NCBI RefSeq assembly: GCF_031127875.1
Contig: NZ_JARXIA010000003.1
Coordinates: forward strand, 62,001-126,000
Origin: Pelagicoccus sp. SDUM812005
GTDB taxonomy: Bacteria > Verrucomicrobiota > Verrucomicrobiia > Opitutales > Opitutaceae
Direction: 5' to 3'
DNA length: 64,000 bases
In this document: positions 6,587 to 64,000 of the stretch, one piece after another
Layout of the letters: every line of letters starts with the position of its first letter
Numbering within the stretch: position 1 is the first letter of the stretch
Program-made: the position numbers and the translations under genes
Notes under the pieces: generated by a model
The model's input: the letters and a program-made list of their open reading frames with translations, nothing else
Told to the model about the DNA's origin: nothing
The model's database searches: none

Positions 6587-8335
6587 CTAGTCGATTTGTC
6601 GGGAAACGCGGTAAAGCTGGCTAGGGGTGTGGTAGCTCGTTGACTCCCGTTCCTGTTCGAGGATGGCGAGGCTGCTCCAGTCAAAGTCCATGAAAGCGGT
6701 GGGGATGTTTTGCGTGTTGTTTACTTGCTGGTAGAGAACGGCGGTGAGTTGGAAGAGGCTGGCGGGCAGCTTGCGGGCCGAAAGGGCGCCGTTGCCGACT
6801 CTTGTGGGGGAGGGGGAATCGCTCTCGCTGGTTTCCTGGGCAGCTTCCTTTTGTCCGAGCAAGGCGTGGAAGCTCTTGAGGGTGCCGCCTCCCAAGAGGA
6901 TGGAGTTGCCGTGGTAGGACAAGGCGTAGCGGTTGCTGGTGAGTGTCGTGTCCCAATTGCGATCGAGGTAGAAAATTCCATCCTCTTGGTAGGCGTTGAG
7001 GGAAGTCGCTTGCATCAGCCTTGGGAGTTGGCTGTCGAGGATGGTCGGAAGGCTGCGGTCGGCGGTGAGTTCGAACTTGTATGCGAAATCGAATACAACC
7101 TGCTCCTGTGTTTGGCCGAATTCGTTTTTGCCGGTTCCGAAGTCCACGGTCTGCAGGTAGGTGACGGAAGGGGCGAAGGCTTTGGGCAGCGACGCTTCGA
7201 GGTCGAAGCCGCTGTCGTACTTGATCTTCGATCGAAGGCCGATGTAGGGAAAGGCGGCGAGCGGGGCGGCCTTTAGAAAGGCGTTCTTTATCTCGAGAAG
7301 CGCTTTCCCGGTGTCGATTTCCAAGGATTCATAGGAGTAGATGGGGGTATTCTCAAGCGGTGGAAAATGGGTTTTGTCGCTGGGGACGAGCGTGTTGAGA
7401 AGCGGAATCTCGGAGCTGTATGTGATTCCTGAATACGCGGCCCGATCGCCGGTGAAACGCATAGCCACGGCGAGGGAATCGATGTGGTCGAGTTCGAGGG
7501 CATCGATGAAGGCGTGAGGGGAGAAGCTGGCGGCGATGCCGCCGGAGCGGATCAGGTCCGCGCGTAGGTCCGAGGCGATTCGTTGAAGGGTGGGGGCGCT
7601 GTTGACGAGCAAGGTGATGTCGGCGGCTCCGAGGTGCTTGTCGATTTCGTGTTTCGTGAGGGCGTCGGCGAGGCTGGCGTGCGGGGCGACGGCGTGGGCG
7701 AGCAGTTTTTGGAGCGTTTGCGGGTGGGTGCAGAGGTAGAAGGTTCCGTCCAAGATGGCCCAGCAGAGCGTGCTTGGAGGCAGGTCTGGATCGAGGGCGG
7801 CGAGGGAGGGCGAGAGGATTTGGTAGGGAATGCCGTTCCAGGATTCGTTTTGCCACCCGATCTCGATTCCGGAGGAGGTGGCGGCCTGGAGGGTGATGGC
7901 GTCGAGGGTTTCTAGAAAGTCGGCTTCCTGTCCGTAGAAGTCGGAGAGCAGGGCGTATTCGATGGAAGCGGATGTCTCGCTGGGGGGCGGGAGCGCGGCG
8001 AGGGCGAGCTGGGTTTTGAAGTGTTGGGAGAGGGCCAGCAGGAGCGCCTCGTCGACCTCCGGCTTGTCGCCGGGGAACTCGAAGGACGCGAACGAGCGTT
8101 CCAGGATTTTTCCGATCGCTTGTACGACTTGTACCGATGCTTGGAGTTGCTGGTCGGTGGCGAAGGCGAGTCCGAGCTTGCGAAGGTGGCGAACCGAGAG
8201 GGAGGCGTAGGTGTCGGCGGGCAGCTTGCGGGCCAGCGAGGGGCGTTCGAAGCCGACGAAGTAGGAGTAGAGAAAGTAGCTCGCGGCGAGGAACCCGATG
8301 AGAAGCAGGGTTCCGATGGCGGTCTTCTTTCCCAT
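6587..8335 (-). CDS. Large N-terminally anchored protein of unknown function
   Basis: A 582-residue protein I do not recognise. Residues 6-27 (IGTLLLIGFLAASYFLYSYFVG) form a membrane anchor or uncleaved signal. The rest looks extracytoplasmic, with repeated blocks that open with 'L...LPADTYASLSVRHL', a pattern reminiscent of DUF3352-type exported proteins in which each unit estimates a scalar per strand. Other segments include YALLSDFYGQEADFLETLDAI and a long beta-rich C-terminal half ending in a tail that mentions no catalytic motif. Its stop is 23 bases from the convergent tatD stop. It lies seven bases downstream of the DUF368 gene and is probably co-transcribed with it and the phosphatase gene, which suggests an envelope role. 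Confidence 0.75.
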   Translation of the reverse strand: MGKKTAIGTLLLIGFLAASYFLYSYFVGFERPSLARKLPADTYASLSVRHLRKLGLAFATDQQLQASVQVVQAIGKILERSFASFEFPGDKPEVDEALLLALSQHFKTQLALAALPPPSETSASIEYALLSDFYGQEADFLETLDAITLQAATSSGIEIGWQNESWNGIPYQILSPSLAALDPDLPPSTLCWAILDGTFYLCTHPQTLQKLLAHAVAPHASLADALTKHEIDKHLGAADITLLVNSAPTLQRIASDLRADLIRSGGIAASFSPHAFIDALELDHIDSLAVAMRFTGDRAAYSGITYSSEIPLLNTLVPSDKTHFPPLENTPIYSYESLEIDTGKALLEIKNAFLKAAPLAAFPYIGLRSKIKYDSGFDLEASLPKAFAPSVTYLQTVDFGTGKNEFGQTQEQVVFDFAYKFELTADRSLPTILDSQLPRLMQATSLNAYQEDGIFYLDRNWDTTLTSNRYALSYHGNSILLGGGTLKSFHALLGQKEAAQETSESDSPSPTRVGNGALSARKLPASLFQLTAVLYQQVNNTQNIPTAFMDFDWSSLAILEQERESTSYHTPSQLYRVSRQID

Positions 8336-55317: not shown

Positions 55318-56181
55318 GTGCCTGACAAAGAGATAATAGAACAACGATCGAGAACGGTTCGTTCCCGCATCCTTCGTATCGGCGACGGCCGAACTCTCTC
55401 GGAGGAAGATCGCCTGACTGTAGAGGAGCCTCTAGAGATCGCCGTGCAAAATGGCAATACAACGCTGCCCTTGGGGGTTGCCTTCCGCACGCCTGGCGAC
55501 GACGAGGCGCTTGTCTTGGGCATGCTTCGCAACGAGGGGATTATCGGCAGCCATTCCGAAGTGCTGTCGATGCGCTTTACTCAGGAGAAGGGGGCGACCA
55601 TGCCGGCTTGGCGGGCCATGGTGAAGGTGTCCGATAAGATCGTTTTGGATACGGATCGGCACCAGCGGGCCTTTCCCATCAGCTCCGCCTGCGGCGCTTG
55701 CGGGAAGAGCGCTCTCGAGTCGCTGCGTATCGCTCGCGAGGATCGCTTCCACGATCGGGAAGGCCCTCGTTTCCAAGAAGCGACCTTGGTCGATTTTCCC
55801 CGTCGCCTCCTGGAGAGGCAGACGGACTTCCAGCATACGGGGGGCCTGCATGCGGCGGCCCGTTTCGGGGCGGATGGCGAGTTGATCGCCTTGGCTGAAG
55901 ACATTGGGCGACACAATGCCATGGACAAGCTGGTCGGGGCATGGCTACGCGGAGACGGCGTGGCCTGGAACGAGCAGGCCATTCTTTTCAGCGGCCGGCT
56001 GGGGTACGACTTGATGCAGAAAGCGATGGCGGTGGGATGTCCGTTTCTGGTTAGTATCGGAGCGCCGTCCAGCTTTGCGGTCGAGCTCGCGAACTTGTTC
56101 AACGTTACCTTGGTCGGTTTTTTAAGGGGCGAGCGATTCAATGTCTACAGTTCGCCCCACCGTATCCAGTTTTCGGATTAG
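55318..56181 (+). CDS. fdhD: Formate dehydrogenase accessory sulfurtransferase FdhD
   Basis: Transfers sulfur to the molybdenum cofactor for formate-dehydrogenase-type enzymes. The 287-residue protein starts at GTG 55318. The conserved Cys pair is C125-G-A-C128 (ISSACGACGKSAL). Further motifs are LRNEGIIGS, GGLHAAARFGADGELIALAEDIGRHNAMDKL and SGRLGYDLMQKAMAVGCPFLVSIGAPS (seen in parts). It lies 15 bases before the molybdoenzyme gene, its presumed client. Confidence 0.94.
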   Translation: MPDKEIIEQRSRTVRSRILRIGDGRTLSEEDRLTVEEPLEIAVQNGNTTLPLGVAFRTPGDDEALVLGMLRNEGIIGSHSEVLSMRFTQEKGATMPAWRAMVKVSDKIVLDTDRHQRAFPISSACGACGKSALESLRIAREDRFHDREGPRFQEATLVDFPRRLLERQTDFQHTGGLHAAARFGADGELIALAEDIGRHNAMDKLVGAWLRGDGVAWNEQAILFSGRLGYDLMQKAMAVGCPFLVSIGAPSSFAVELANLFNVTLVGFLRGERFNVYSSPHRIQFSD

Positions 56182-56196
56182 CTAACCCATTGCGCC

Positions 56197-58485
56197 ATGT
56201 CTGATATCCCAAACGAGAATACTCCAGAAAAGTTCGAACGGCTTTGCGTATCCAAACCCGCTGACAAGGCAGGCGGGGCGGGCGCCGTTTACCATGCGAT
56301 GCGCCATGCGATTGGGAAGGCGGGAGTTGCTCGAGCCAAGGATGCCTTGACCAAGCTGAACCAAAAGGGCGGCTTCGATTGCCCGAGTTGCGCCTGGCCG
56401 GATCCCGATGGGCACCGGAGCTCCTTCGAGTTTTGCGAGAACGGGGCCAAGGCGGTGGCCAGCGAGGCGACGGCTGAGCGTATCGACGCGCGTTTCTTCG
56501 CGAAGCATTCGGTAGCTGAGCTGGCGGAGCGGAGCGACCTTTGGCACGACCAGCAGGGGCGCCTTACGGAGCCGATGGTATTGCGCGAAGGCGGGACGCA
56601 CTATGAGCCCATTTCCTGGGAAGGGGCCTTCGACTTGATCGCGGGGGAACTCGGAGAATTGGCCGATCCCAACCAAGCCATTTTCTACACCTCCGGTCGG
56701 GCTAGCAACGAAGCTGCGTTTCTGTATCAGCTTTTCGTGCGAGCCTTCGGTACCAACAACCTTCCCGATTGTTCGAACATGTGCCACGAGTCCAGCGGCT
56801 TGGCGCTGAAGCAGTCGATCGGTGTAGGGAAGGGAACGGTGACCCTGGAAGACTTGCGGGAAGCGGAGTTGATCCTGGTGATTGGGCAGAATCCCGGCAC
56901 CAACCATCCGCGCATGCTTTCTACCTTGCAGCAAGCGAAGGAAAAGGGGGCTCGAATTGTATCCATTAATCCTCTACGGGAAGCGGGACTGGTTGCCTTT
57001 AGCCATCCGCAGCGAGTTTCCCAGGTCCTAGGAGGCAAGACGCCGCTGGCAGATACCTTCGTCAAGATTCGCACGAACGGGGACCAAGCCTTGTTCCAAG
57101 CCATCGGCAAACGCTTGCTGGAAATGGAGCAGGCGGGGCGAAGCGTTCTCGATTGCGACTTTATCAATGACTACACGGCAGGCATTGGCGAGTACCGGGA
57201 AGCTTTGAAGCGAACCCCGTGGCCGAGCTTGCTGGATGCCTGCGGCCTGGAAATGGCGACGGTGAACGATCTTGCGGAAGCCTTTGCCACCAAGCAGCGC
57301 ATCATTTCTTGTTGGGCGATGGGCCTGACGCAGCATCGCAATGCGGTGGCGACGATCCGAGAGTTGACGAACCTGCATCTTTTGCGAGGAGCGATCGGAA
57401 TAAAGGGGGCAGGCATGTGTCCGGTGCGTGGGCACAGCAATGTGCAGGGGGATCGCACGATGGGTATCTTCGAGCACATGCCGGAGTGGTTTTATGCGGC
57501 GCTCGAAAAGGAGTTCGGCATCGATTGTCCGCGGGAGACAGGATTGAATGCGGTGCATTCGATTCGACGAATGAAGGAGCATCCAGGCAGCGTGTTCCTA
57601 GCTCTCGGAGGGAACTTCCTTTCAGCGACTCCGGATACTGGATACACGGCAGCCGCTTTGCGGAATTGTCGGCTGACGGCGCATGTGTCCACGAAGTTGA
57701 ACCGATCGCATCTGGTAACCGGCAAGCAGGCTCTCATTTTGCCGTGCCTGGGACGATCCGAGCGAGATGAGCAAGCCAACGGAGCCCAGTGGGTGAGCGT
57801 GGAGAACTCGATGGGAATCGTGCATTCTTCGTCGGGCCAATTGCCGCCCGCTTCTCCCAACCTGAAGAGCGAAGTGGCGATCGTTTGCGGCATTGCGCGT
57901 CGGGCGTTGAGGAATCGAAAAGGGCAGATCGATTGGACGGGGTTCGAGACGGACTATTCCAAGATCCGTTCCGCAATCGAGCGCGTGATCCCCGGTTTCG
58001 AGGACTACAACCAGCGAGCCCGGCAACCGGGCGGTTATTACTTGCCCAATGCGGTGAAGGAGCGTCGCTTCGAAACGGATACGGGAAAGGCGAATTTCGC
58101 GACGAGCCCTCTCGACATCGAACGAGCGGAGCCGGGGCGATTGCTGTTGATGACGATTCGCAGTCACGACCAATTCAATACGACAGTTTATGGCCTGGAC
58201 GATCGCTATCGCGGAATAAGGGGAGAGCGCCGGATCGTGATGGTGAACCCGGCGGACATGGAGCGACTGGGGTTGTCGACGGAGGACGAAGTGGATGTGC
58301 ACTCCTTTTTCAAGGGAGAGGAACGCGTGACGCGTTTGTATCGACTGATTCCCTACGACATTCCTGTTGGATGCGTGGCGATGTACTTCCCCGAGGCCAA
58401 CGCGTTGGTGCCGATCGACCATATCGCGGTGGGAAGCGAAACGCCGGCGTCGAAGTCCGTTCAGGTGGAAATTCGCAAGCGTTAG
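56197..58485 (+). CDS. Molybdopterin oxidoreductase, YdeP/FdhF-like
   Basis: A 762-residue cytoplasmic molybdoenzyme, of the YdeP type rather than a classical three-subunit formate dehydrogenase. N-terminal Cys62, Cys65 and Cys80 (CPSCAWPD...FC) may bind an iron-sulfur cluster. Molybdopterin-binding parts are TSGRASNEAAFLYQLFVRAFGTNNLPDCSNMCHESSGLAL and, later, GQNPGTNHPRML and GIKGAGMCPVRGHSNVQGDRT. The C-terminal dinucleotide-binding domain ends in VDHIAVGS. YdeP relatives are linked to acid resistance and may oxidise formate; the substrate is not established. Confidence 0.9.
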   Translation: MSDIPNENTPEKFERLCVSKPADKAGGAGAVYHAMRHAIGKAGVARAKDALTKLNQKGGFDCPSCAWPDPDGHRSSFEFCENGAKAVASEATAERIDARFFAKHSVAELAERSDLWHDQQGRLTEPMVLREGGTHYEPISWEGAFDLIAGELGELADPNQAIFYTSGRASNEAAFLYQLFVRAFGTNNLPDCSNMCHESSGLALKQSIGVGKGTVTLEDLREAELILVIGQNPGTNHPRMLSTLQQAKEKGARIVSINPLREAGLVAFSHPQRVSQVLGGKTPLADTFVKIRTNGDQALFQAIGKRLLEMEQAGRSVLDCDFINDYTAGIGEYREALKRTPWPSLLDACGLEMATVNDLAEAFATKQRIISCWAMGLTQHRNAVATIRELTNLHLLRGAIGIKGAGMCPVRGHSNVQGDRTMGIFEHMPEWFYAALEKEFGIDCPRETGLNAVHSIRRMKEHPGSVFLALGGNFLSATPDTGYTAAALRNCRLTAHVSTKLNRSHLVTGKQALILPCLGRSERDEQANGAQWVSVENSMGIVHSSSGQLPPASPNLKSEVAIVCGIARRALRNRKGQIDWTGFETDYSKIRSAIERVIPGFEDYNQRARQPGGYYLPNAVKERRFETDTGKANFATSPLDIERAEPGRLLLMTIRSHDQFNTTVYGLDDRYRGIRGERRIVMVNPADMERLGLSTEDEVDVHSFFKGEERVTRLYRLIPYDIPVGCVAMYFPEANALVPIDHIAVGSETPASKSVQVEIRKR

Positions 58486-58511: not shown

Positions 58512-59210
58512 TTAGCGGGTGACCGCTTTCAGGGCTTTGGCGAGGATGGTTGCGTAGGATTCGCCGTCGAGATCGAGGTCGAGGGCTTGGCTGAATTCAA
58601 GTTCGATTCCGATGTATTTGCTTTCGGGATACCGTTTGCGGAGTGCGGTGGTGTGGCCGTCTTCGCGTCCATGGTAGGGTTCGTTGGGGCGGATCTCGAG
58701 ATCGGGAAGCACGATTTTTAGGAGTTTCAGGAGCTTCTTGCTGAAGGCTTCTTCGGCGGGGCGTTGGTCGTCGAAGAGGATGCCTAGGTCGACGTCACGC
58801 CGTTTTCCTTGGAAGGTTTTGGTGAAGGAGTGGATGGAGAGGTGAACGACAGTGCAGTCTTCGTGCTGGGCAGCTTCGATGCTGCGGCGGGCCTCCGCTC
58901 GGAAGGGGATGAAGATCTCGGTTAGCAGCCGGGCTTTTTCGGACTCGCAGAGGTCGTAAACGATTGGGCTAAATTGGCTGGGGTTTCCAATGGAGCGATT
59001 CAGGTCGACCGCGAGGCGAGAGAATTGGCCAAGGATAAGCGGGCAGCTTAGTTTGTGGGCGAGTTCTTCGGCGATGGCTTTGGTTCCCGGATCGTAGACC
59101 TGGTGGGTTTCGCAGCTCGCGGCGTAGGTTTGCAAGGCGAGCTTCAGGCTGTTGGGAATCTCAGCGGAAGCATGCTCAGCGGTGACGATGAATTTGTAGG
59201 AGGCGCTCAT
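58512..59210 (-). CDS. N-formylglutamate amidohydrolase-like protein
   Basis: A 232-residue protein from ATG 59210. The FGase pattern is clear: FIVTAEHASAEIP near the N terminus, FSRLAVDLNRSIGNPSQF, and VHLSIHSFTKTF with metal-ligand His residues. The C-terminal block is ESKYIGIELEFSQAL. Family enzymes deformylate N-formylglutamate or cleave related amides. Eleven bases after the GCS2-type gene, it is the last of the minus-strand amidoligase operon, so a modified-glutamate substrate is likely. Confidence 0.88.
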   Translation of the reverse strand: MSASYKFIVTAEHASAEIPNSLKLALQTYAASCETHQVYDPGTKAIAEELAHKLSCPLILGQFSRLAVDLNRSIGNPSQFSPIVYDLCESEKARLLTEIFIPFRAEARRSIEAAQHEDCTVVHLSIHSFTKTFQGKRRDVDLGILFDDQRPAEEAFSKKLLKLLKIVLPDLEIRPNEPYHGREDGHTTALRKRYPESKYIGIELEFSQALDLDLDGESYATILAKALKAVTR

Positions 59211-59221
59211 CCGCTTTTCTC

Positions 59222-60460
59222 TCAGTTGGTGAACGGTTCCGAGTTGGCGAGGCAGGAGCTCAGCTGGGCCATGGTTTCGCGGAGCTGTTCCTGGTTCGGC
59301 TTTTTCCCGACGCGAGCCAAGATTCGTTCGGCGAGGTTGCCTTCTTGCAGGATATAGCCGAGGGCTTCGCGGCGCTTGGAGACGCGCGGGTGGTTCTTGA
59401 GGACGTCCACGATCTTTGCCCACAGCTCGCCTACGGAGGTTTCATTCGCCTTCAGGTCGAAGAGTTCCGCGAGGTCGCGCAGGAGCAGGTCCGCTTCGAA
59501 TCCGTCGCGGGCAATGGCCATGAGCTGTTCCTTGCGTTCCTTAGGCGTGTAGCGGGTTGCGAACTCTTTGAGCGTCTCGATATCCAAGGCGCAGAGGCTT
59601 TCCAGCAGGGCGATGATTAGGCTGCAGATTCCGATGTCTTGCGTCGGATTCTCTTGTGTATCCAAAAGTCGGATCTCGATGGCGTTGCGGTCGAAGCGAG
59701 CGATGGCTCCACGAGAGTTTAGCCATTCGTATTGGAGGATGCCGTCCGGATCGTAGGGCTTGATGGCTTGGTAGGTCTTTTGCAGGATTTCCGTTTGGTA
59801 GTCCTGGTAGGTGAAGATGGGCTCGGGAATGATGTTGCCCGCTATTTCCGGTACCTTTGCCTGGTTGTTTTTATAGACGTCGATGCGTGTATCCAGAAAT
59901 CCACGATATTCGCCTTCGATAATGGGACTGCTCGCCGCGAGGGCCGGCAGATAGGGCAGGATGAGGATGATGGCGGCGTGGAGGCGGGCGAATTCCTCTT
60001 CGTTGGCGAAGGGGAGGTTGATGTGGCAGCTTTGCAGGTTGAACCAGCCGTGGCTGCTGCAGCCGAAAATGCGGTCGTAGGCTTCGTAGATCGTGCGATC
60101 GCCTTCGCTCCAAGTCTTTCCTTCGACGCTGGGGTCCATGAAGGGATGGATGCCGCCGGGGGCCAGCATGGCGTTGTGGGCGGCGAGCCGCGAATTCATT
60201 TCGGCGATGGCGTCGTGGAAGTCGGACTCGAGCTGCTCCAGGTCCGAAGTCGGCCCAGCGGTCTTGAATTCGAGCACATGGGTGGCGAGCTCGTTGGATA
60301 CGTCGATGGACCCGAGGGAGATTTCCTGGGTGGTATTTCCATTTTCGTCGAGCAGGATGGATTCGGCGATCGGGCAGGGGCGAAGCGTATCGCGATCGAC
60401 GATCATGTATTCAAGTTCGATGCCGAAGGCTTCGAAGATTGAGAGTGTTTTCTTGGACAT
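59222..60460 (-). CDS. GCS2-type glutamate-cysteine ligase homologue
   Basis: A 412-residue ATP-dependent carboxylate-amine ligase of the GCS2/YbdK group. Motifs are FGIELEYMIVD (substrate and Mg2+ glutamates), VSNELATHVLEFKT, CHINLPFANEEEFARLHAAII and ARFDRNAIEIRLLDTQENP. The family joins glutamate, or related acids, to an amine. It lies 26 bases downstream of the RimK-type ligase, and both ligases belong to one operon. Its true substrates are unknown; no glutathione synthetase gene is near. Confidence 0.9.
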   Translation of the reverse strand: MSKKTLSIFEAFGIELEYMIVDRDTLRPCPIAESILLDENGNTTQEISLGSIDVSNELATHVLEFKTAGPTSDLEQLESDFHDAIAEMNSRLAAHNAMLAPGGIHPFMDPSVEGKTWSEGDRTIYEAYDRIFGCSSHGWFNLQSCHINLPFANEEEFARLHAAIILILPYLPALAASSPIIEGEYRGFLDTRIDVYKNNQAKVPEIAGNIIPEPIFTYQDYQTEILQKTYQAIKPYDPDGILQYEWLNSRGAIARFDRNAIEIRLLDTQENPTQDIGICSLIIALLESLCALDIETLKEFATRYTPKERKEQLMAIARDGFEADLLLRDLAELFDLKANETSVGELWAKIVDVLKNHPRVSKRREALGYILQEGNLAERILARVGKKPNQEQLRETMAQLSSCLANSEPFTN

Positions 60461-60486
60461 TGAGAAAGGTGTTGGAAGTCGTGGCG

Positions 60487-61965
60487 TTAGCGGGCGTGCT
60501 TGGATTCGAGACGCTTTAGGAAGGTGTTCATGACGGCGAGGTAAAGCTCGTCGCCGATAAGCTCGTCTTCGATGCCGGCGTCGATGCTAGGGTTGTCGTT
60601 TACCTCAATCACCAAGGCAGTGTCGCCGTGTTGCTTGAGGTCCACGCCATAGAAGCCGTTGCCGATGAGGCCGGCAGCTTTGAGCGCAGTATCGAGCACG
60701 CATGGCGGGACGTTGGAGATGGGGACGCCGTTGCTGTCGCCGCAGAAGTCGTCGCCCTTGACGGCGTGGTTGTAGATTTGCCAGTGGCCTTTGCTCATGT
60801 AGTAGCGGCAGGCATACAGGGGAGTTCCGTCGATGATGCCGATGCGCCAGTCGAATTCGGTAGGAACGAACTCTTGGGCGATGAGGATGCTGGAGGTTTG
60901 CAGCAGCTTCTTGCAGAGGGTGTGGAATTCTTGGGAGGAACGGACTTTGTGTACGCCGATGGAGAAGGAGCCGTCGGGGATCTTGACGACGATCGGGTAG
61001 TGGAAGTTCTCGGCGAGTTCGTTGACGTTGCGTCGGGTGACGAGCGTCGAGTTTGGCGTAGGGATATTATGGGTACGAAGGAGCTCGGCGAGGAATACCT
61101 TGTTGCAGCAACGGCGGATGGACTCGGGATCGTCGATCACGACCATGCCGGAACGTTCCGCCTTGAGGGCGAAGCGCATGGTATGGTTGTCGAGGCGAGT
61201 GGTTTCGCGGATGAAGAGCGCGTCGAATTCCATGAGGCGCGGCAGGTCGCGCGGTGTGAGGATTTCGGCTCGCATGTCGAGCTGGTTCGCGGCTTTGCAA
61301 AAGGCGTCGAGGGCGGCTTTGTCGGAGGGCGCGTTGGCTTCCTGCTCGTTGGCGAGGATGGCGATTTCGTAGCGTGGAGTCTTGTTGGACTGGTCGCGCC
61401 GCCAGCGCTTGTGGAAAAGCGAGTTGAGCTCGGTCTCGATGAACTCGTGGTGTTCGTCGGGAACTTGGTGCAGGCCGAGCTGGGTGATTTCGTTGAGCTT
61501 CCACTTTCCGTCCCGCTTGTGGAACTCGTAGCGGGCGAGCGGGCAAGGGAAGAGGGAGTAGAGTCGCTTGGCCAGCTTGTCGTAGGCCTTGGCGAGGTTC
61601 TTTCCGAAGTAGACGCTGAGGGTGAACTCGTGGGCGGCGAGGCGCTTGAAGGAGCTCTGGATGAGTTCGTCGTGTTCGCGGATCGCGTCGCGGATGAGGA
61701 CCTTGCTCTCGATTTGGTGTAGGGTCTTGGCTTCCGGTAGGCAGCGGTGGCTGCGGGCGTCGGCGAGCAGCGAGACGTAGTAGCTGGTGGAGAGCGCCTT
61801 CTTGTGGGAGCAGAGGTTTATGACCTTGATGCGCTTTTTCTCGGCGTATTCGGAAGACAGGTACTCGCTCGAGGTAATGAGCGGCAGTTCTTGGAAGCGC
61901 TCGGGGATTTTAGAAAGCGAGTCGACGACGATGCGAAAGGCTGATTCTTGGGAGTTCATCTTCAC
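60487..61965 (-). CDS. RimK-family ATP-grasp ligase with RLAN N-terminal domain
   Basis: A 492-residue peptide/amide ligase. The N-terminal about 200 residues (KVINLCSHKKALSTSYYVSLLADARSHRCLPE; YEFHKRDGKWKLNEITQLGL) fit the RimK-associated RLAN module. The C-terminal ATP-grasp (about 280-480) has DDPESIRRCCNKVFLAELL, HYPIVVKIPDGSFSIGVHKV, VPTEFDWRIGIIDGTPLYACRYYM and the metal-binding GVDLKQHGDTALVIEVNDNPSIDAGIEDEL. It probably ligates glutamate or another amino acid to a carboxylate. The start is GTG 61965, overlapping the peptidase stop, or ATG 61959. Confidence 0.9.
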   Translation of the reverse strand: MKMNSQESAFRIVVDSLSKIPERFQELPLITSSEYLSSEYAEKKRIKVINLCSHKKALSTSYYVSLLADARSHRCLPEAKTLHQIESKVLIRDAIREHDELIQSSFKRLAAHEFTLSVYFGKNLAKAYDKLAKRLYSLFPCPLARYEFHKRDGKWKLNEITQLGLHQVPDEHHEFIETELNSLFHKRWRRDQSNKTPRYEIAILANEQEANAPSDKAALDAFCKAANQLDMRAEILTPRDLPRLMEFDALFIRETTRLDNHTMRFALKAERSGMVVIDDPESIRRCCNKVFLAELLRTHNIPTPNSTLVTRRNVNELAENFHYPIVVKIPDGSFSIGVHKVRSSQEFHTLCKKLLQTSSILIAQEFVPTEFDWRIGIIDGTPLYACRYYMSKGHWQIYNHAVKGDDFCGDSNGVPISNVPPCVLDTALKAAGLIGNGFYGVDLKQHGDTALVIEVNDNPSIDAGIEDELIGDELYLAVMNTFLKRLESKHAR

Positions 61966-62669
61966 TTTTTTTCGATTAGGAGCAGGTTGGCGTCGTAGGT
62001 GACGATGCCGAGCATGACGGAATTTATGAGACGTTGCGGATCTATGGCGTAGATCAGGGAATCGGAGAGCGGGTTTTTGTGGTAGGGATCGGCTACGAGG
62101 ATCTGCTTGTTGGCGTGGTCGTATTCAAAAAGCGTTACGAAGTGTCCTTCTACGTCGCCGGTTACGTCGTCGTCCTTGCCGTTCTTCTTGAGTCGGGAGG
62201 TGCGGTAGAGGTGGGTGGAGTTGAGCCCGGCGATGACGGGGTTGCCGTGGGCGAGGAGCATGGCGAGCAGAGCGGAGTCAAGTTCGTCGAAGCGGATGGT
62301 GCCGCCTCGCTCGAGGTATTCGATGTAGGCGGAGAGATTGGCTCGGGCCCGTTTGCTGCTGCTGTGTTCGCGGCGGACGGCCAGCTTTTTGCTGATTTCG
62401 TCGGACTTGAGGTTGGCCCAGGTCGGGTCGAATACGCGGAGGTTGTAACTGTAGATGGTGGCTTGGTACCCGCGCTTCAGAGCATGGTTGGCGAGCATGA
62501 CGGAATAGGTGCCGCCGTCGGGATTTTCCGGGATGTCGGAAATGATTTGCTCGAGGGCGTAGTCGTCCTCGAAATGTTGATACACTGCCTGCAGGCAGGT
62601 GGGACCGCAGCTGGTCTCGGTGGGTTGCGCCTGCATTTTCAGTTCGCGGCGCGATGGGTTCGTTTTCAT
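61962..62669 (-). CDS. Cytoplasmic C39-like cysteine peptidase
   Basis: A 235-residue papain-like peptidase of the C39 type. The triad is visible at Cys21 (PTETSCGPTCLQAVY), His176 (VEGHFVTLFEYD) and Asp194 (VADPYHKNP). No signal peptide or transporter domain is attached, so it acts in the cytoplasm, unlike bacteriocin-processing C39 exporters. It overlaps the RimK-type ligase, implying that it trims or releases the ligase product. An in-frame ATG at residue 12 is a possible shorter start. Confidence 0.87.
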   Translation of the reverse strand: MKTNPSRRELKMQAQPTETSCGPTCLQAVYQHFEDDYALEQIISDIPENPDGGTYSVMLANHALKRGYQATIYSYNLRVFDPTWANLKSDEISKKLAVRREHSSSKRARANLSAYIEYLERGGTIRFDELDSALLAMLLAHGNPVIAGLNSTHLYRTSRLKKNGKDDDVTGDVEGHFVTLFEYDHANKQILVADPYHKNPLSDSLIYAIDPQRLINSVMLGIVTYDANLLLIEKK

Positions 62670-62714
62670 TTTCTAGGTGTCCTAAGTGTGGAAACCTCTT
62701 GGGTGCGATTGCGG

Positions 62715-63467
62715 TTACTTGTCTCTGTTTTTGTAGCGGGAGACAATCATAGAATTCGGTTCAAGGGGGACTCCGAGCTCTCCTTTGCGTTGGTAGTCGC
62801 ACTGGGAGAGAACGTAGCGGATGGCTTCCATGCGGGCGACGCCCTTGTCGTTGCCGTCGACGATGATCCAGGGGGACTTGTCGCTATGGGTGAGCTCGAA
62901 CATGCGCTCCTTGTATTGGGTGAAGTCGTCCCATTTCTCCTGGGCGAGGGCGTCGATGGTGCTGAGCTTCCACTGGTAGAGGATGTCGGAGGCGCGGCGT
63001 TCGATGCGCTGGCCTTGGGCTTCCCGGTTGATGGAGAACCAAAGTTTTATAATTTGGATACCGTCGTCGATGAGCATGTTTTCCACTACGGGAACTTGTT
63101 GCATGAACATCTCGTGCTGCTGGGGCGTGCAAAAGCCCATGACTGGCTCCACTACGGCGCGGTTGTACCAGCTGCGGTCGAAGAATACGATTTCGCCCGG
63201 ATTGGGCATGTGGCGCAGGTAGCGCTGGAAGAACCATTGGCCGCTTTCTTCCTGGGTGGGCTTGGGCAAGGCGATGACGTTGAGGAAGCGGGGGTTGAGG
63301 TGTTCGGCGAAGCGGCGAATGGCGCCGCCTTTGCCGGCGGTGTCGCGTCCCTCGAAGATTACGAGCAGGCGGCGGCCTTCGGTTTGGATCGATTGCTGCA
63401 GCAGCACGAGCTCGCGCTGGAGGTTGCGAAACTCCAGGAGGTACTCTTCGGTCAGTTCGTTGCTCAT
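62715..63467 (-). CDS. ppk2: Polyphosphate kinase 2
   Basis: A 250-residue PPK2-family kinase, which uses polyphosphate to phosphorylate nucleotides. Walker A is G40-R-D-T-A-G-K-G-G48 (FEGRDTAGKGGAIRRF). Walker B is VFFDRSWYNRAVVEPVMGF (Asp97, Arg98), and the lid module is RASDILYQWKLSTIDALAQEKWDDF. The normal length and all motifs suggest an active enzyme. Its place between the AstE-like and peptidase genes suggests it supplies ATP or GTP to the ligases. Confidence 0.94.
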   Translation of the reverse strand: MSNELTEEYLLEFRNLQRELVLLQQSIQTEGRRLLVIFEGRDTAGKGGAIRRFAEHLNPRFLNVIALPKPTQEESGQWFFQRYLRHMPNPGEIVFFDRSWYNRAVVEPVMGFCTPQQHEMFMQQVPVVENMLIDDGIQIIKLWFSINREAQGQRIERRASDILYQWKLSTIDALAQEKWDDFTQYKERMFELTHSDKSPWIIVDGNDKGVARMEAIRYVLSQCDYQRKGELGVPLEPNSMIVSRYKNRDK

Positions 63468-63485
63468 GGCGCGGAGGCGCGGGCT

Positions 63486-64000
63486 CTAGGATTCGGAGAC
63501 CTCGACCACGTCGACGTTGGTCGCGAGGTCGGACTGGGCCTGTTTGTAGGGGTCAGTCTTGTCCTTGTTGAGGTTTCGCTCGTACCGCTTGATTTGGCTT
63601 TCGGACAATTTGGCGATATGGCAGACGGGTTCGCCCGGCTTGACCGCGGGCATGGTGGCCATGCCGATGGCGATGCCGTGGGTGGGGCTGGTGATGATGT
63701 TTTGTTCTTCCCCGAGGATGCTGTAGTTGGTGGCGATGGCGTGCCCTTCGCGCACGAATTCGCCAGGGCTAATGTGGAACTTCAGGATGCCGCCGACGGT
63801 GGCGCGTACCCACTGGGTCTTGCGGATGGTGGCTTGGAAGGGAGGAGGCATGGAGTCTCCGTCCTGCATGCCCAGGTGGATGAGGACGTTGCGGATGCCT
63901 TGTACTCCGATTTGCAATACGCTGGGTTCGATCTTCCAGGGCTCGCCCGCTTCCAGGATGATGGTGGGCACGCCGGCGCGGGCGCATTCGCGGCGGAAGG
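63486..64000 (-). CDS. AstE/aspartoacylase-family hydrolase, C-terminal part (cut by window edge)
   Basis: The frame continues past the right edge, and its 171 visible residues are the C-terminal half of a succinylglutamate desuccinylase/aspartoacylase family protein. Seen are VPTIILEAGEPWKIEPSV, the lipoyl-like RATVGGILKFHISPGEFVREGHAIATNY and SPTHGIAIGMATMPAVKPGEPVCHIAKL. The zinc-binding N terminus lies outside the window. A GTG at 63971 is not a true start because the frame is open upstream. The family cleaves N-acyl amino acids. It is the first visible gene of the amidoligase operon. Confidence 0.87.
   Translation of the reverse strand, partial: FRRECARAGVPTIILEAGEPWKIEPSVLQIGVQGIRNVLIHLGMQDGDSMPPPFQATIRKTQWVRATVGGILKFHISPGEFVREGHAIATNYSILGEEQNIITSPTHGIAIGMATMPAVKPGEPVCHIAKLSESQIKRYERNLNKDKTDPYKQAQSDLATNVDVVEVSES

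What the first reader, a model, noticed from the sequence alone, without database searches (positions are those of the whole stretch)
58512..64000. Six-gene amidoligase operon of unknown product
One minus-strand run holds an AstE-type hydrolase, PPK2, a C39-like peptidase, a RimK/RLAN ATP-grasp ligase, a GCS2-type ligase and an N-formylglutamate amidohydrolase-like protein. The gaps are 47 bases or less, and the peptidase and RimK-type genes overlap. Combinations of RimK-like ATP-grasp, GCS2 and peptidases have been predicted by comparative genomics as peptide or tag pathways, but I know of no experimentally defined product for this set. The layout suggests a build-and-trim pathway that attaches glutamate or a related acid to an unknown molecule.
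Basis: partly seen in the sequence, partly recalled or inferred. Interest (0 to 1): 0.8.

Follow-up and report, generated by a model that had tools for sequence, protein, structure and literature searches.

The report
Two-part peptide-ligase operon in Pelagicoccus
A marine Verrucomicrobia-type bacterium carries a long operon of enzymes that seem to build and trim small glutamate-rich peptides or tags; its core set recurs in other bacteria, but what it makes is still unknown.

Summary
The six genes are real; five are complete, and AstE runs off the window edge. The run starts further upstream: the parent contig adds RimK (with a TrkA_C domain) and RimB, giving eight genes with gaps of 45 nt or less, preceded on the same strand by glutamate dehydrogenase, MgtE- and MscS-type genes.

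Comparison splits it into two separable modules. Module 1, RimB-RimK-AstE, occurs without RLAN in the same family. Module 2, C39 peptidase - RLAN/RimK ligase - GCS2 ligase (- FGase), recurs within the phylum and in a Desulfovibrionaceae genome (Hydrogenedentota: without C39), usually with touching genes. Its C39 and GCS2 subfamilies had no match in 250 RLAN-negative genomes. All six genes together were found in 2 of 68 RLAN loci; PPK2 and AstE are local additions.

In these 68 loci the partner within 2 kb is a GNAT (37), a GCS2 (24) or neither (7), never both. I read GCS2 as filling the acyl-capping slot that GNAT fills elsewhere, in a capped-peptide pathway that works like NAGGN synthesis; protein tagging is the main rival. 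The product is unproven. The general class was predicted in 2009 (recalled); this composite and the swap look like a new variant.

The parts
58512..59207 (-). N-formylglutamate amidohydrolase-like hydrolase (FGase), last gene; start re-set from 59423 to 59207
   Evidence: PF05013 81.5 bits; aligned with 9 homologues from other loci
59222..60460 (-). GCS2-type carboxylate-amine ligase; the only GCS2 found in this genome
   Evidence: PF04107 105.8 bits; single genome match; 22-row alignment
60487..61965 (-). RLAN + RimK-like ATP-grasp ligase, GTG start overlapping the C39 stop by 4 nt
   Evidence: PF14401 138.3 bits, PF08443 37.5 bits; model Z up to 27.4 to ArgX, LysX and RimK over residues 199-490
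61962..62669 (-). C39-like cysteine peptidase; Q15, C21, H176, D194 invariant in 21 rows
   Evidence: PF13529 41.4 bits; model Z 14-15 to PeiR, ComA, PCAT1 and phytochelatin synthase Alr0975
62715..63467 (-). Polyphosphate kinase 2; a local addition seen at this place in two of the loci
   Evidence: PF03976 281.6 bits; TIGR03707 323.3 over cut-off 301.8
63486..64000 (-). AstE/aspartoacylase-like hydrolase, C-terminal part; the gene continues outside the window (L002 5486-6559, i.e. to window position 64559)
   Evidence: full gene PF24827 116.8 bits; follows RimB-RimK in 6 of 7 RimB loci of the family

Best explanation
This is the end of an eight-gene (possibly up to 13-gene) Pelagicoccus-type operon made of two separable glutamate/peptide modules. 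Module 2 (C39, RLAN-RimK, GCS2, FGase) is a capped-peptide pathway: the RLAN-RimK enzyme uses ATP to activate a carboxylate and joins it to the amine of a second, probably acidic, amino acid; GCS2 makes the other amide bond and so caps the amine end with a gamma-glutamyl group, the step that an acetyltransferase (GNAT) performs in the sister systems; the C39 enzyme and FGase then trim or recycle the peptide. Module 1 (RimB, RimK with TrkA_C, AstE, near glutamate dehydrogenase) makes and trims poly-alpha-glutamate, with the TrkA_C domain as a likely ligand or ion switch. Shown: gene content, order, overlap, conservation of residues, separability of the modules, absence of loci with both GNAT and GCS2 close to RLAN. 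Inferred: substrates, product, direction, capping role, location in the cytosol, osmotic or storage purpose.
For: C39 and RLAN genes overlap or nearly touch (median gap -4 nt in 21 loci; RLAN-GCS2 median 5 in 24; GCS2-FGase median 4.5 in 10). Of 68 RLAN loci, 37 have a GNAT and 24 a GCS2 within 2 kb, 7 neither, 0 both; at least 2 partner changes on the RLAN tree. C39-type domains accompany both kinds: C39 in 20 of 24 GCS2 loci, DUF3335 within 2.3 kb in 11 of 37 GNAT loci. In 288 genomes of the phylum, C39 (14, E up to 1e-10) and GCS2 (12, E up to 1e-30) of this kind occur only among the 38 RLAN-positive genomes, in none of the other 250. ATP-grasp part: best Z 27.4 to ArgX, 27.3 LysX, 27.2 RimK, against 23.5 or less for D-Ala ligases. 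Ngg does both N-acetylation and peptide-bond formation in NAGGN synthesis, with a peptidase in the operon (PMC8070244, passages). PMC4431377 (passages) says that ATP-grasp ligases linked with COOH-NH2 ligase or GNAT genes often make successive peptide ligations, and posits GNAT capping for its own R2K families.
Against: No substrate or product was tested. The closest folds, ArgX, LysX and RimK, act on protein C-termini (partly recalled), which favours the tagging rival. Six RLAN genes have no GNAT of the partner type, no GCS2 and no C39 beside them, so RLAN may have a job alone. The GNAT/GCS2 exclusivity rests on few independent events (2 changes), and L014, a GCS2 locus, has a weak GNAT match (31 bits) over 5 kb away. 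FGase is in only 10 of 24 loci. No osmotic data exist here. RLAN is absent from the 14 control genomes.
Confidence: 0.45

Rival explanations
1. Protein tagging: RLAN-RimK and GCS2 add amino acids to a terminus or side chain of a cellular protein or carrier, and C39 and FGase remove them, as RimK/RimB do on ribosomal protein S6 or LysX/ArgX on LysW.
For: Closest folds are ArgX (solved with LysW), LysX and RimK (solved with RpsF). RimB counteracts RimK on RpsF (PMC12239564 passages). The GNAT partner of sister systems has RimI as its best NCBIfam match, below the cut-off (61.8 of 86.4 bits). RLAN is an extra front domain that could bind a protein.
Against: No short ORF beside module 2 is shared by more than three loci, so no carrier gene is evident. 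Known GCS2-type ligases act on small molecules (recalled).
Confidence: 0.27
2. A glutathione-like route: GCS2 acts as the GshA step, RLAN-RimK as the GshB step, C39 as a phytochelatin-synthase-like gamma-glutamyl peptidase, making or recycling a low-molecular-weight thiol.
For: C39 model Z 14.1 to Alr0975 phytochelatin synthase; glutathione synthetase 1gsa is in the ATP-grasp list, Z 21.8; the only GCS2 found in the genome is here.
Against: GCS2 scores far below the listed glutamate-cysteine ligase cut-offs (30.9 of 249 bits for gshA_cyano) and RLAN-RimK below glutathione synthase (28.9 of 299). The C39 match is tied with ComA, PCAT1 and PeiR. Only weak matches to YbdK and a plant GCL among PDB sequences.
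Confidence: 0.1
3. The two modules are merely neighbours: RimB-RimK-AstE and C39-RLAN-GCS2-FGase were brought together in one Pelagicoccus branch and work on different substrates. (This can hold together with the other readings of module 2.)
For: In 100 genomes of the family RLAN is in 9 and RimB in 7, with 4 holding both; the two are neighbours in 2 of these 4, on different contigs in one and about 100 kb apart in one. In DG1235 (L084) the modules are near each other but parted by glutamate dehydrogenase and an opposite-strand MscS-type gene, so one transcript is unlikely there.
Against: The modules stay within about 2.5 kb of each other in three Pelagicoccus-type genomes (L002, L083, L084) although the genes between them differ; both handle acidic peptides by family.
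Confidence: 0.37
4. A RiPP pathway in which C39 removes a leader and the ligases modify a ribosomal core peptide.
For: A C39 peptidase/ABC transporter cluster is the first row of a table of families associated with graspetide ATP-grasp loci, though the same paper says the C39 peptidase is not typically encoded there (PMC8939145 passages).
Against: Among 2244 short ORFs within 4.5 kb of 25 RLAN genes none was shared by more than three loci, and the three-locus ones are Pelagicoccus-type and lie over AstE. The test is weak for very divergent precursors.
Confidence: 0.03

Closest known systems
Predicted amidoligase clusters of Iyer, Abhiman, Burroughs and Aravind 2009 (content recalled; paper not held; seen only in reference lists)
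   Same: RimK-like ATP-grasp enzymes linked with GCS2 or GNAT ligases and with peptidases; RLAN is Pfam family PF14401
RimABK / RloABC systems of Pseudomonas (PMC11957791, PMC12239564, PMC10092738: passages)
   Same: RimB-type retropepsin next to a RimK that scores over the S6-ligase cut-off
   Different: RimK carries a C-terminal TrkA_C domain, AstE follows, RimB is below the RimB equivalog cut-off, and this genome's S6 lacks an acidic tail
NAGGN osmolyte synthesis (Ngg, AsnO, peptidase; PMC8070244 passages)
   Same: Capping, peptide ligation and a peptidase in one operon
   Different: Here GCS2 in place of GNAT, no asparagine-synthase-type gene in the run, C39 in place of the aminopeptidase
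Glutathione / phytochelatin pathway
   Same: GCS-type ligase, ATP-grasp ligase and papain-like enzyme as a set
   Different: GCS2 and RLAN-RimK fall below the curated cut-offs for the glutathione enzymes

Membership tests
RLAN-RimK amidoligase cluster | RLAN domain followed by RimK-like ATP-grasp | tested here: met
   PF14401 138.3 bits and PF08443 37.5 bits, both over cut-off
RLAN-RimK amidoligase cluster | ATP-grasp catalytic residues kept | tested here: met
   E454, N456, D457, N458, P459 invariant in 36 rows; their metal-binding role is recalled
RLAN-RimK amidoligase cluster | second ligase and a peptidase linked in the operon | tested here: met
   GCS2 in 24 and GNAT in 37 of 68 loci; C39 in 20 of 24 GCS2 loci
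RLAN-RimK amidoligase cluster | peptide-ligase activity | not testable with these tools
   needs enzyme assays
RimBK ribosome modification (module 1) | RimK over the S6-glutamate ligase cut-off | tested here: met
   NF007764 338.7 bits, cut-off 331
RimBK ribosome modification (module 1) | RimB equivalog | tested here: not met
   PF05618 76.7 over 27, but NF052261 80.2 bits under cut-off 200
RimBK ribosome modification (module 1) | acidic S6 C-terminus as acceptor | tested here: not met
   the genome's one S6 match ends in SHKMIQKA; that E. coli S6 ends in Glu-Glu is recalled
NAGGN synthesis | N-acetylglutaminylglutamine synthetase equivalog TIGR03103 | tested here: not met
   RimK 43.2 bits, cut-off 569; not among the 25 listed of 26 families for RLAN-RimK
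Glutathione synthesis | GCS2 and ATP-grasp over glutathione-enzyme cut-offs | tested here: not met
   30.9 of 249 bits and 28.9 of 299 bits
Phytochelatin synthase | papain-like fold close to Alr0975 | tested here: inconclusive
   Z 14.1, tied with ComA, PCAT1 and PeiR at 14-15
Graspetide or other RiPP | conserved precursor peptide beside the ligase | tested here: not met
   none shared by more than three loci among 2244 short ORFs

The most novel reading that the evidence does not exclude
Module 2 is an uncharacterised, widespread pathway for a gamma-glutamyl-capped peptide (cofactor, osmolyte or counter-ion), in which a GCS2 ligase and a RimI-like acetyltransferase are interchangeable capping enzymes on one RLAN peptide ligase; in Pelagicoccus it is coupled to an ion- or nucleotide-gated (TrkA_C) poly-glutamate synthetase, so that one locus sets glutamate polymer pools against osmotic or Mg2+ state (MscS-type genes lie in or beside the locus in the window genome and in DG1235, and MgtE genes upstream).
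Probability: 0.22. Interest if true: 0.78.

Novelty: new variant of a known kind. Interest (0 to 1): 0.5.

Why it matters
RLAN ligases turn up in records labelled Verrucomicrobiota, Bacteroidota, Pseudomonadota, Spirochaetes and others, and I saw no product named for them in the papers listed by my searches. The choice between GCS2 and GNAT partners makes the chemistry testable: one RLAN step should go with products capped in two different ways. If confirmed it would give a function to a family that also occurs in Pseudomonas.

Tried and rejected
Rejected: six genes as one conserved unit (all six in 2 of 68 loci). Set aside: S6 as the obvious target of the operon's RimK, since this S6 lacks an acidic tail; another target or free poly-glutamate is open. 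Disfavoured: RiPP. Led nowhere: plasmid search with the C39 protein, no match; promoter scan, 0 sites where 2.6 are expected by chance. Literature: searches (4 of 4 papers listed; 20 of 25; 3 of 3; 0; 0; 20 of 132; 20 of 30; 8 of 118) showed, in titles and opening lines of the listed papers, none that defines a product for C39-RLAN-GCS2; the word RLAN had 0 occurrences in the 20 listed. The library lacks most subscription papers; Iyer 2009 is not held.

Limits. The RLAN model has pTM 0.61; the C39 model rests on 4 sequences. In some searches only part of each genome's candidates was scored (up to 9 and 6), and the profiles were seeded partly from the positive genomes, so the informative number is the absence from the 250 RLAN-negative genomes. 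One search used one protein and so finds close relatives. The GNAT label needs a match to a profile grown from one partner GNAT; L064, counted as 'neither', has a GNAT of another type (PF13302, 78.5 bits) about 1.2 kb away on the same strand. Rows dropped before the 68-locus count: L017 (same organism as L084), L078 and L082 (short or broken RLAN), and the short duplicate loci L001, L003-L010, L019-L046. Near-copies left in: L093/L094/L097 and L079/L080. Against strict pairing: genome G113 has a GNAT-RLAN locus and a C39 of this kind on another contig. RimK in L121 reads in two pieces.
Full report
OBSERVATION. The window is positions 62001-126000 of contig C53 (352,910 bases) of a 6.65-Mb genome. 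Its closest named relatives at this locus are Pelagicoccus sp. SDUM812002 (86% identity in the RLAN protein) and Verrucomicrobiae bacterium DG1235 (81%); Pelagicoccus is in Verrucomicrobiota, and I take the window genome to be of that kind. Five are complete; AstE is cut by the window end. The ORF listed from 59423 begins inside GCS2; alignment with nine homologues puts the FGase start at about 59207.

EXTENT. I read 20 kb around the window end (L002; window position = L002 position + 58000). The run continues upstream with RimK (L002 6560-7777, 405 aa: Rimk_N, RimK and TrkA_C domains) and RimB (7790-8242), gaps 0 and 12 nt; the eight genes from RimB to FGase have gaps of -4 to 45 nt. A 222-nt gap separates RimB from an unclassified 241-aa gene; beyond lie glutamate dehydrogenase, two MgtE-type genes and an MscS-type gene on the same strand. 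No sigma-70-like site was found in the region, so transcript borders are unknown.

TWO MODULES. In 100 genomes of the family, RLAN occurs in 9 and RimB in 7, with 4 holding both. RimB, RimK and AstE are together in 6 of the 7 RimB genomes (the seventh, L122, shows RimB alone, and RimK in L121 reads in two pieces), including G063 and G008, which have no RLAN match. Of the 4 with both, G019 has them on different contigs and G064 about 100 kb apart; in the window genome and DG1235 they are neighbours. Pelagicoccus sp. SDUM812002 (L083), outside that sample, has the window's order, PPK2 included. In DG1235 glutamate dehydrogenase and then an opposite-strand MscS-type gene (304 aa, PF00924 65.4 bits) stand between AstE and C39, so a single transcript is unlikely there. 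One more, distant PPK2 match lies about 2 kb from a GNAT-type RLAN gene (L071). The RimK-TrkA_C architecture was confirmed in L118, L119 and L120.

MODULE 2. In 288 genomes of the phylum RLAN is in 38; it is absent from the 14 control genomes. Profiles of the operon's C39 and GCS2 subfamilies match 14 (E up to 1e-10) and 12 (E up to 1e-30) genomes, every one RLAN-positive; none of the 250 RLAN-negative genomes matches. The profiles were seeded in part from these positives, and only some candidates per genome were scored. One C39 match (G113) was not in the seeds and lies on another contig than that genome's GNAT-linked RLAN. In the 24 GCS2-linked RLAN loci, C39 is directly upstream in 20 and FGase downstream in 10 (one locus, L069, ends within GCS2); L059 has C39 and no GCS2. 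C39-RLAN gaps have median -4 nt (exactly -4 in 10 of 21), RLAN-GCS2 median 5 (24), GCS2-FGase median 4.5 (10); most start codons were chosen by rule, so single values are approximate. Besides the window's phylum, the order C39-RLAN-GCS2-FGase is in a Desulfovibrionaceae MAG (L088); three Hydrogenedentota loci have RLAN-GCS2 without C39, one of them at a contig edge.

PARTNER SWAP. Of 68 RLAN loci with an intact ligase, 37 have a partner-type GNAT and 24 a GCS2 within 2 kb, 7 neither, none both. L014, a GCS2 locus, has a weak GNAT match over 5 kb away, and L064, counted as neither, has a GNAT of another type about 1.2 kb away. In Bacteroidota the RLAN ORFs are often about 650 aa; in L096 GNAT and RLAN are shown to be one protein. 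The RLAN tree needs at least 2 changes between GNAT and GCS2, so the exclusivity is clear but rests on few events. A C39-like DUF3335 domain lies within 2.3 kb in 11 of the 37 GNAT loci, as a GNAT-DUF3335 protein in Pseudomonas syringae L091 and Bacteriovorax L101; the L101 protein also matches PF13529, the family of the operon's C39. In L101 an aspartoacylase follows RLAN (NF002601 240.5 bits, cut-off 180). Six loci have RLAN without partner GNAT, GCS2 or C39, and a Pseudomonas aeruginosa plasmid record lists no such neighbour within 4 kb of its RLAN gene.

ENZYMES. C39: Q15, C21, H176 and D194 are invariant in 21 rows (that these are oxyanion and triad residues is recalled); model mean pLDDT 81.5, pTM 0.81, from 4 sequences, Z 14.7 to pseudomurein endoisopeptidase PeiR, 14.6 to ComA, 14.1 to phytochelatin synthase Alr0975, all tied. 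This suits a peptide or isopeptide hydrolase or transferase but does not say which. RLAN-RimK: model pLDDT 81.3, pTM 0.61; residues 199-490 reach Z 27.4 to ArgX, 27.3 to LysX and 27.2 to RimK (other LysX entries 23.4-23.6), against 23.5 or less for D-Ala ligases. RLAN (about 8-185) is an extra front domain whose own fold was not tested. GCS2: far from known glutamate-cysteine ligases by score, weak match to YbdK 1r8g, and the only GCS2 found in the genome. FGase: relative 2odf, a hypothetical protein. PPK2: over the TIGR03707 cut-off.

MODULE 1 TARGET. RimK scores over the S6-ligase equivalog cut-off (338.7, cut-off 331), but the genome's one S6 match ends SHKMIQKA, without an acidic tail, while bL9 encoded nearby (named by me from its sequence) ends in an acidic tail with a terminal Glu. 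RimK also makes poly-alpha-glutamate in work cited or reported in PMC12239564 and PMC11957791 (passages). I therefore favour poly-alpha-glutamate or another target.

MECHANISM. Best reading, 0.45: module 2 makes and trims a small capped peptide. It works like Ngg, which acetylates and ligates glutamine in NAGGN synthesis (PMC8070244, passages), with GCS2 in the capping slot. PMC4431377 (passages) states that linked ATP-grasp, COOH-NH2 ligase and GNAT genes have been seen before and often make successive ligations. The main rival, protein tagging, 0.27, is favoured by the fold neighbours.

NOVELTY. The kind (amidoligase clusters with peptidases) was predicted in 2009 (recalled; not held). The composite with RimB-RimK(TrkA_C)-AstE and the counted GNAT/GCS2 alternation I did not see in the papers listed by searches, several of which showed only part of their hits. 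I rate it a new variant, interest 0.5.

Noticed in passing
L002 6560-7777 (window position 64560-65777, outside the window): RimK with a C-terminal TrkA_C domain; the same architecture in L118, L119 and L120. Among the 20 listed of 30 papers none held TrkA-C together with RimK.
   Followed up: partly
L109 418-936 and 1489-1785: The genome's bL9 (named by eye) ends in an acidic tail with terminal Glu (EAEEAEGEAEAASDKE) while its S6 has none; bL9 might be a RimK substrate here.
   Followed up: no
L002 10528-12698 and 12711-13562; L084 8223-9137: Two overlapping MgtE-type genes, both with an MgtE_N domain but only one with the transporter domain, beside an MscS-type gene upstream of the operon; in DG1235 another MscS-type gene lies between the two modules on the opposite strand.
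   Followed up: partly
window 55318-58485, + strand: FdhD and an FdhF/YdeP-family molybdopterin oxidoreductase, convergent with the amidoligase operon.
   Followed up: partly
L002 8465-9190: 241-aa protein with no Pfam or NCBIfam match, kept near RimB in three Pelagicoccus-type genomes.
   Followed up: no
L124 3848-5437: An RLAN-RimK gene annotated 'RimK family alpha-L-glutamate ligase' on a Pseudomonas aeruginosa plasmid record, with no GNAT, C39 or GCS2 named nearby.
   Followed up: partly
L052, L061, L064, L066, L068, L073: RLAN genes with no partner-type GNAT, GCS2 or C39 beside them, at several places in the tree: what the ligase does alone is unexplained.
   Followed up: partly
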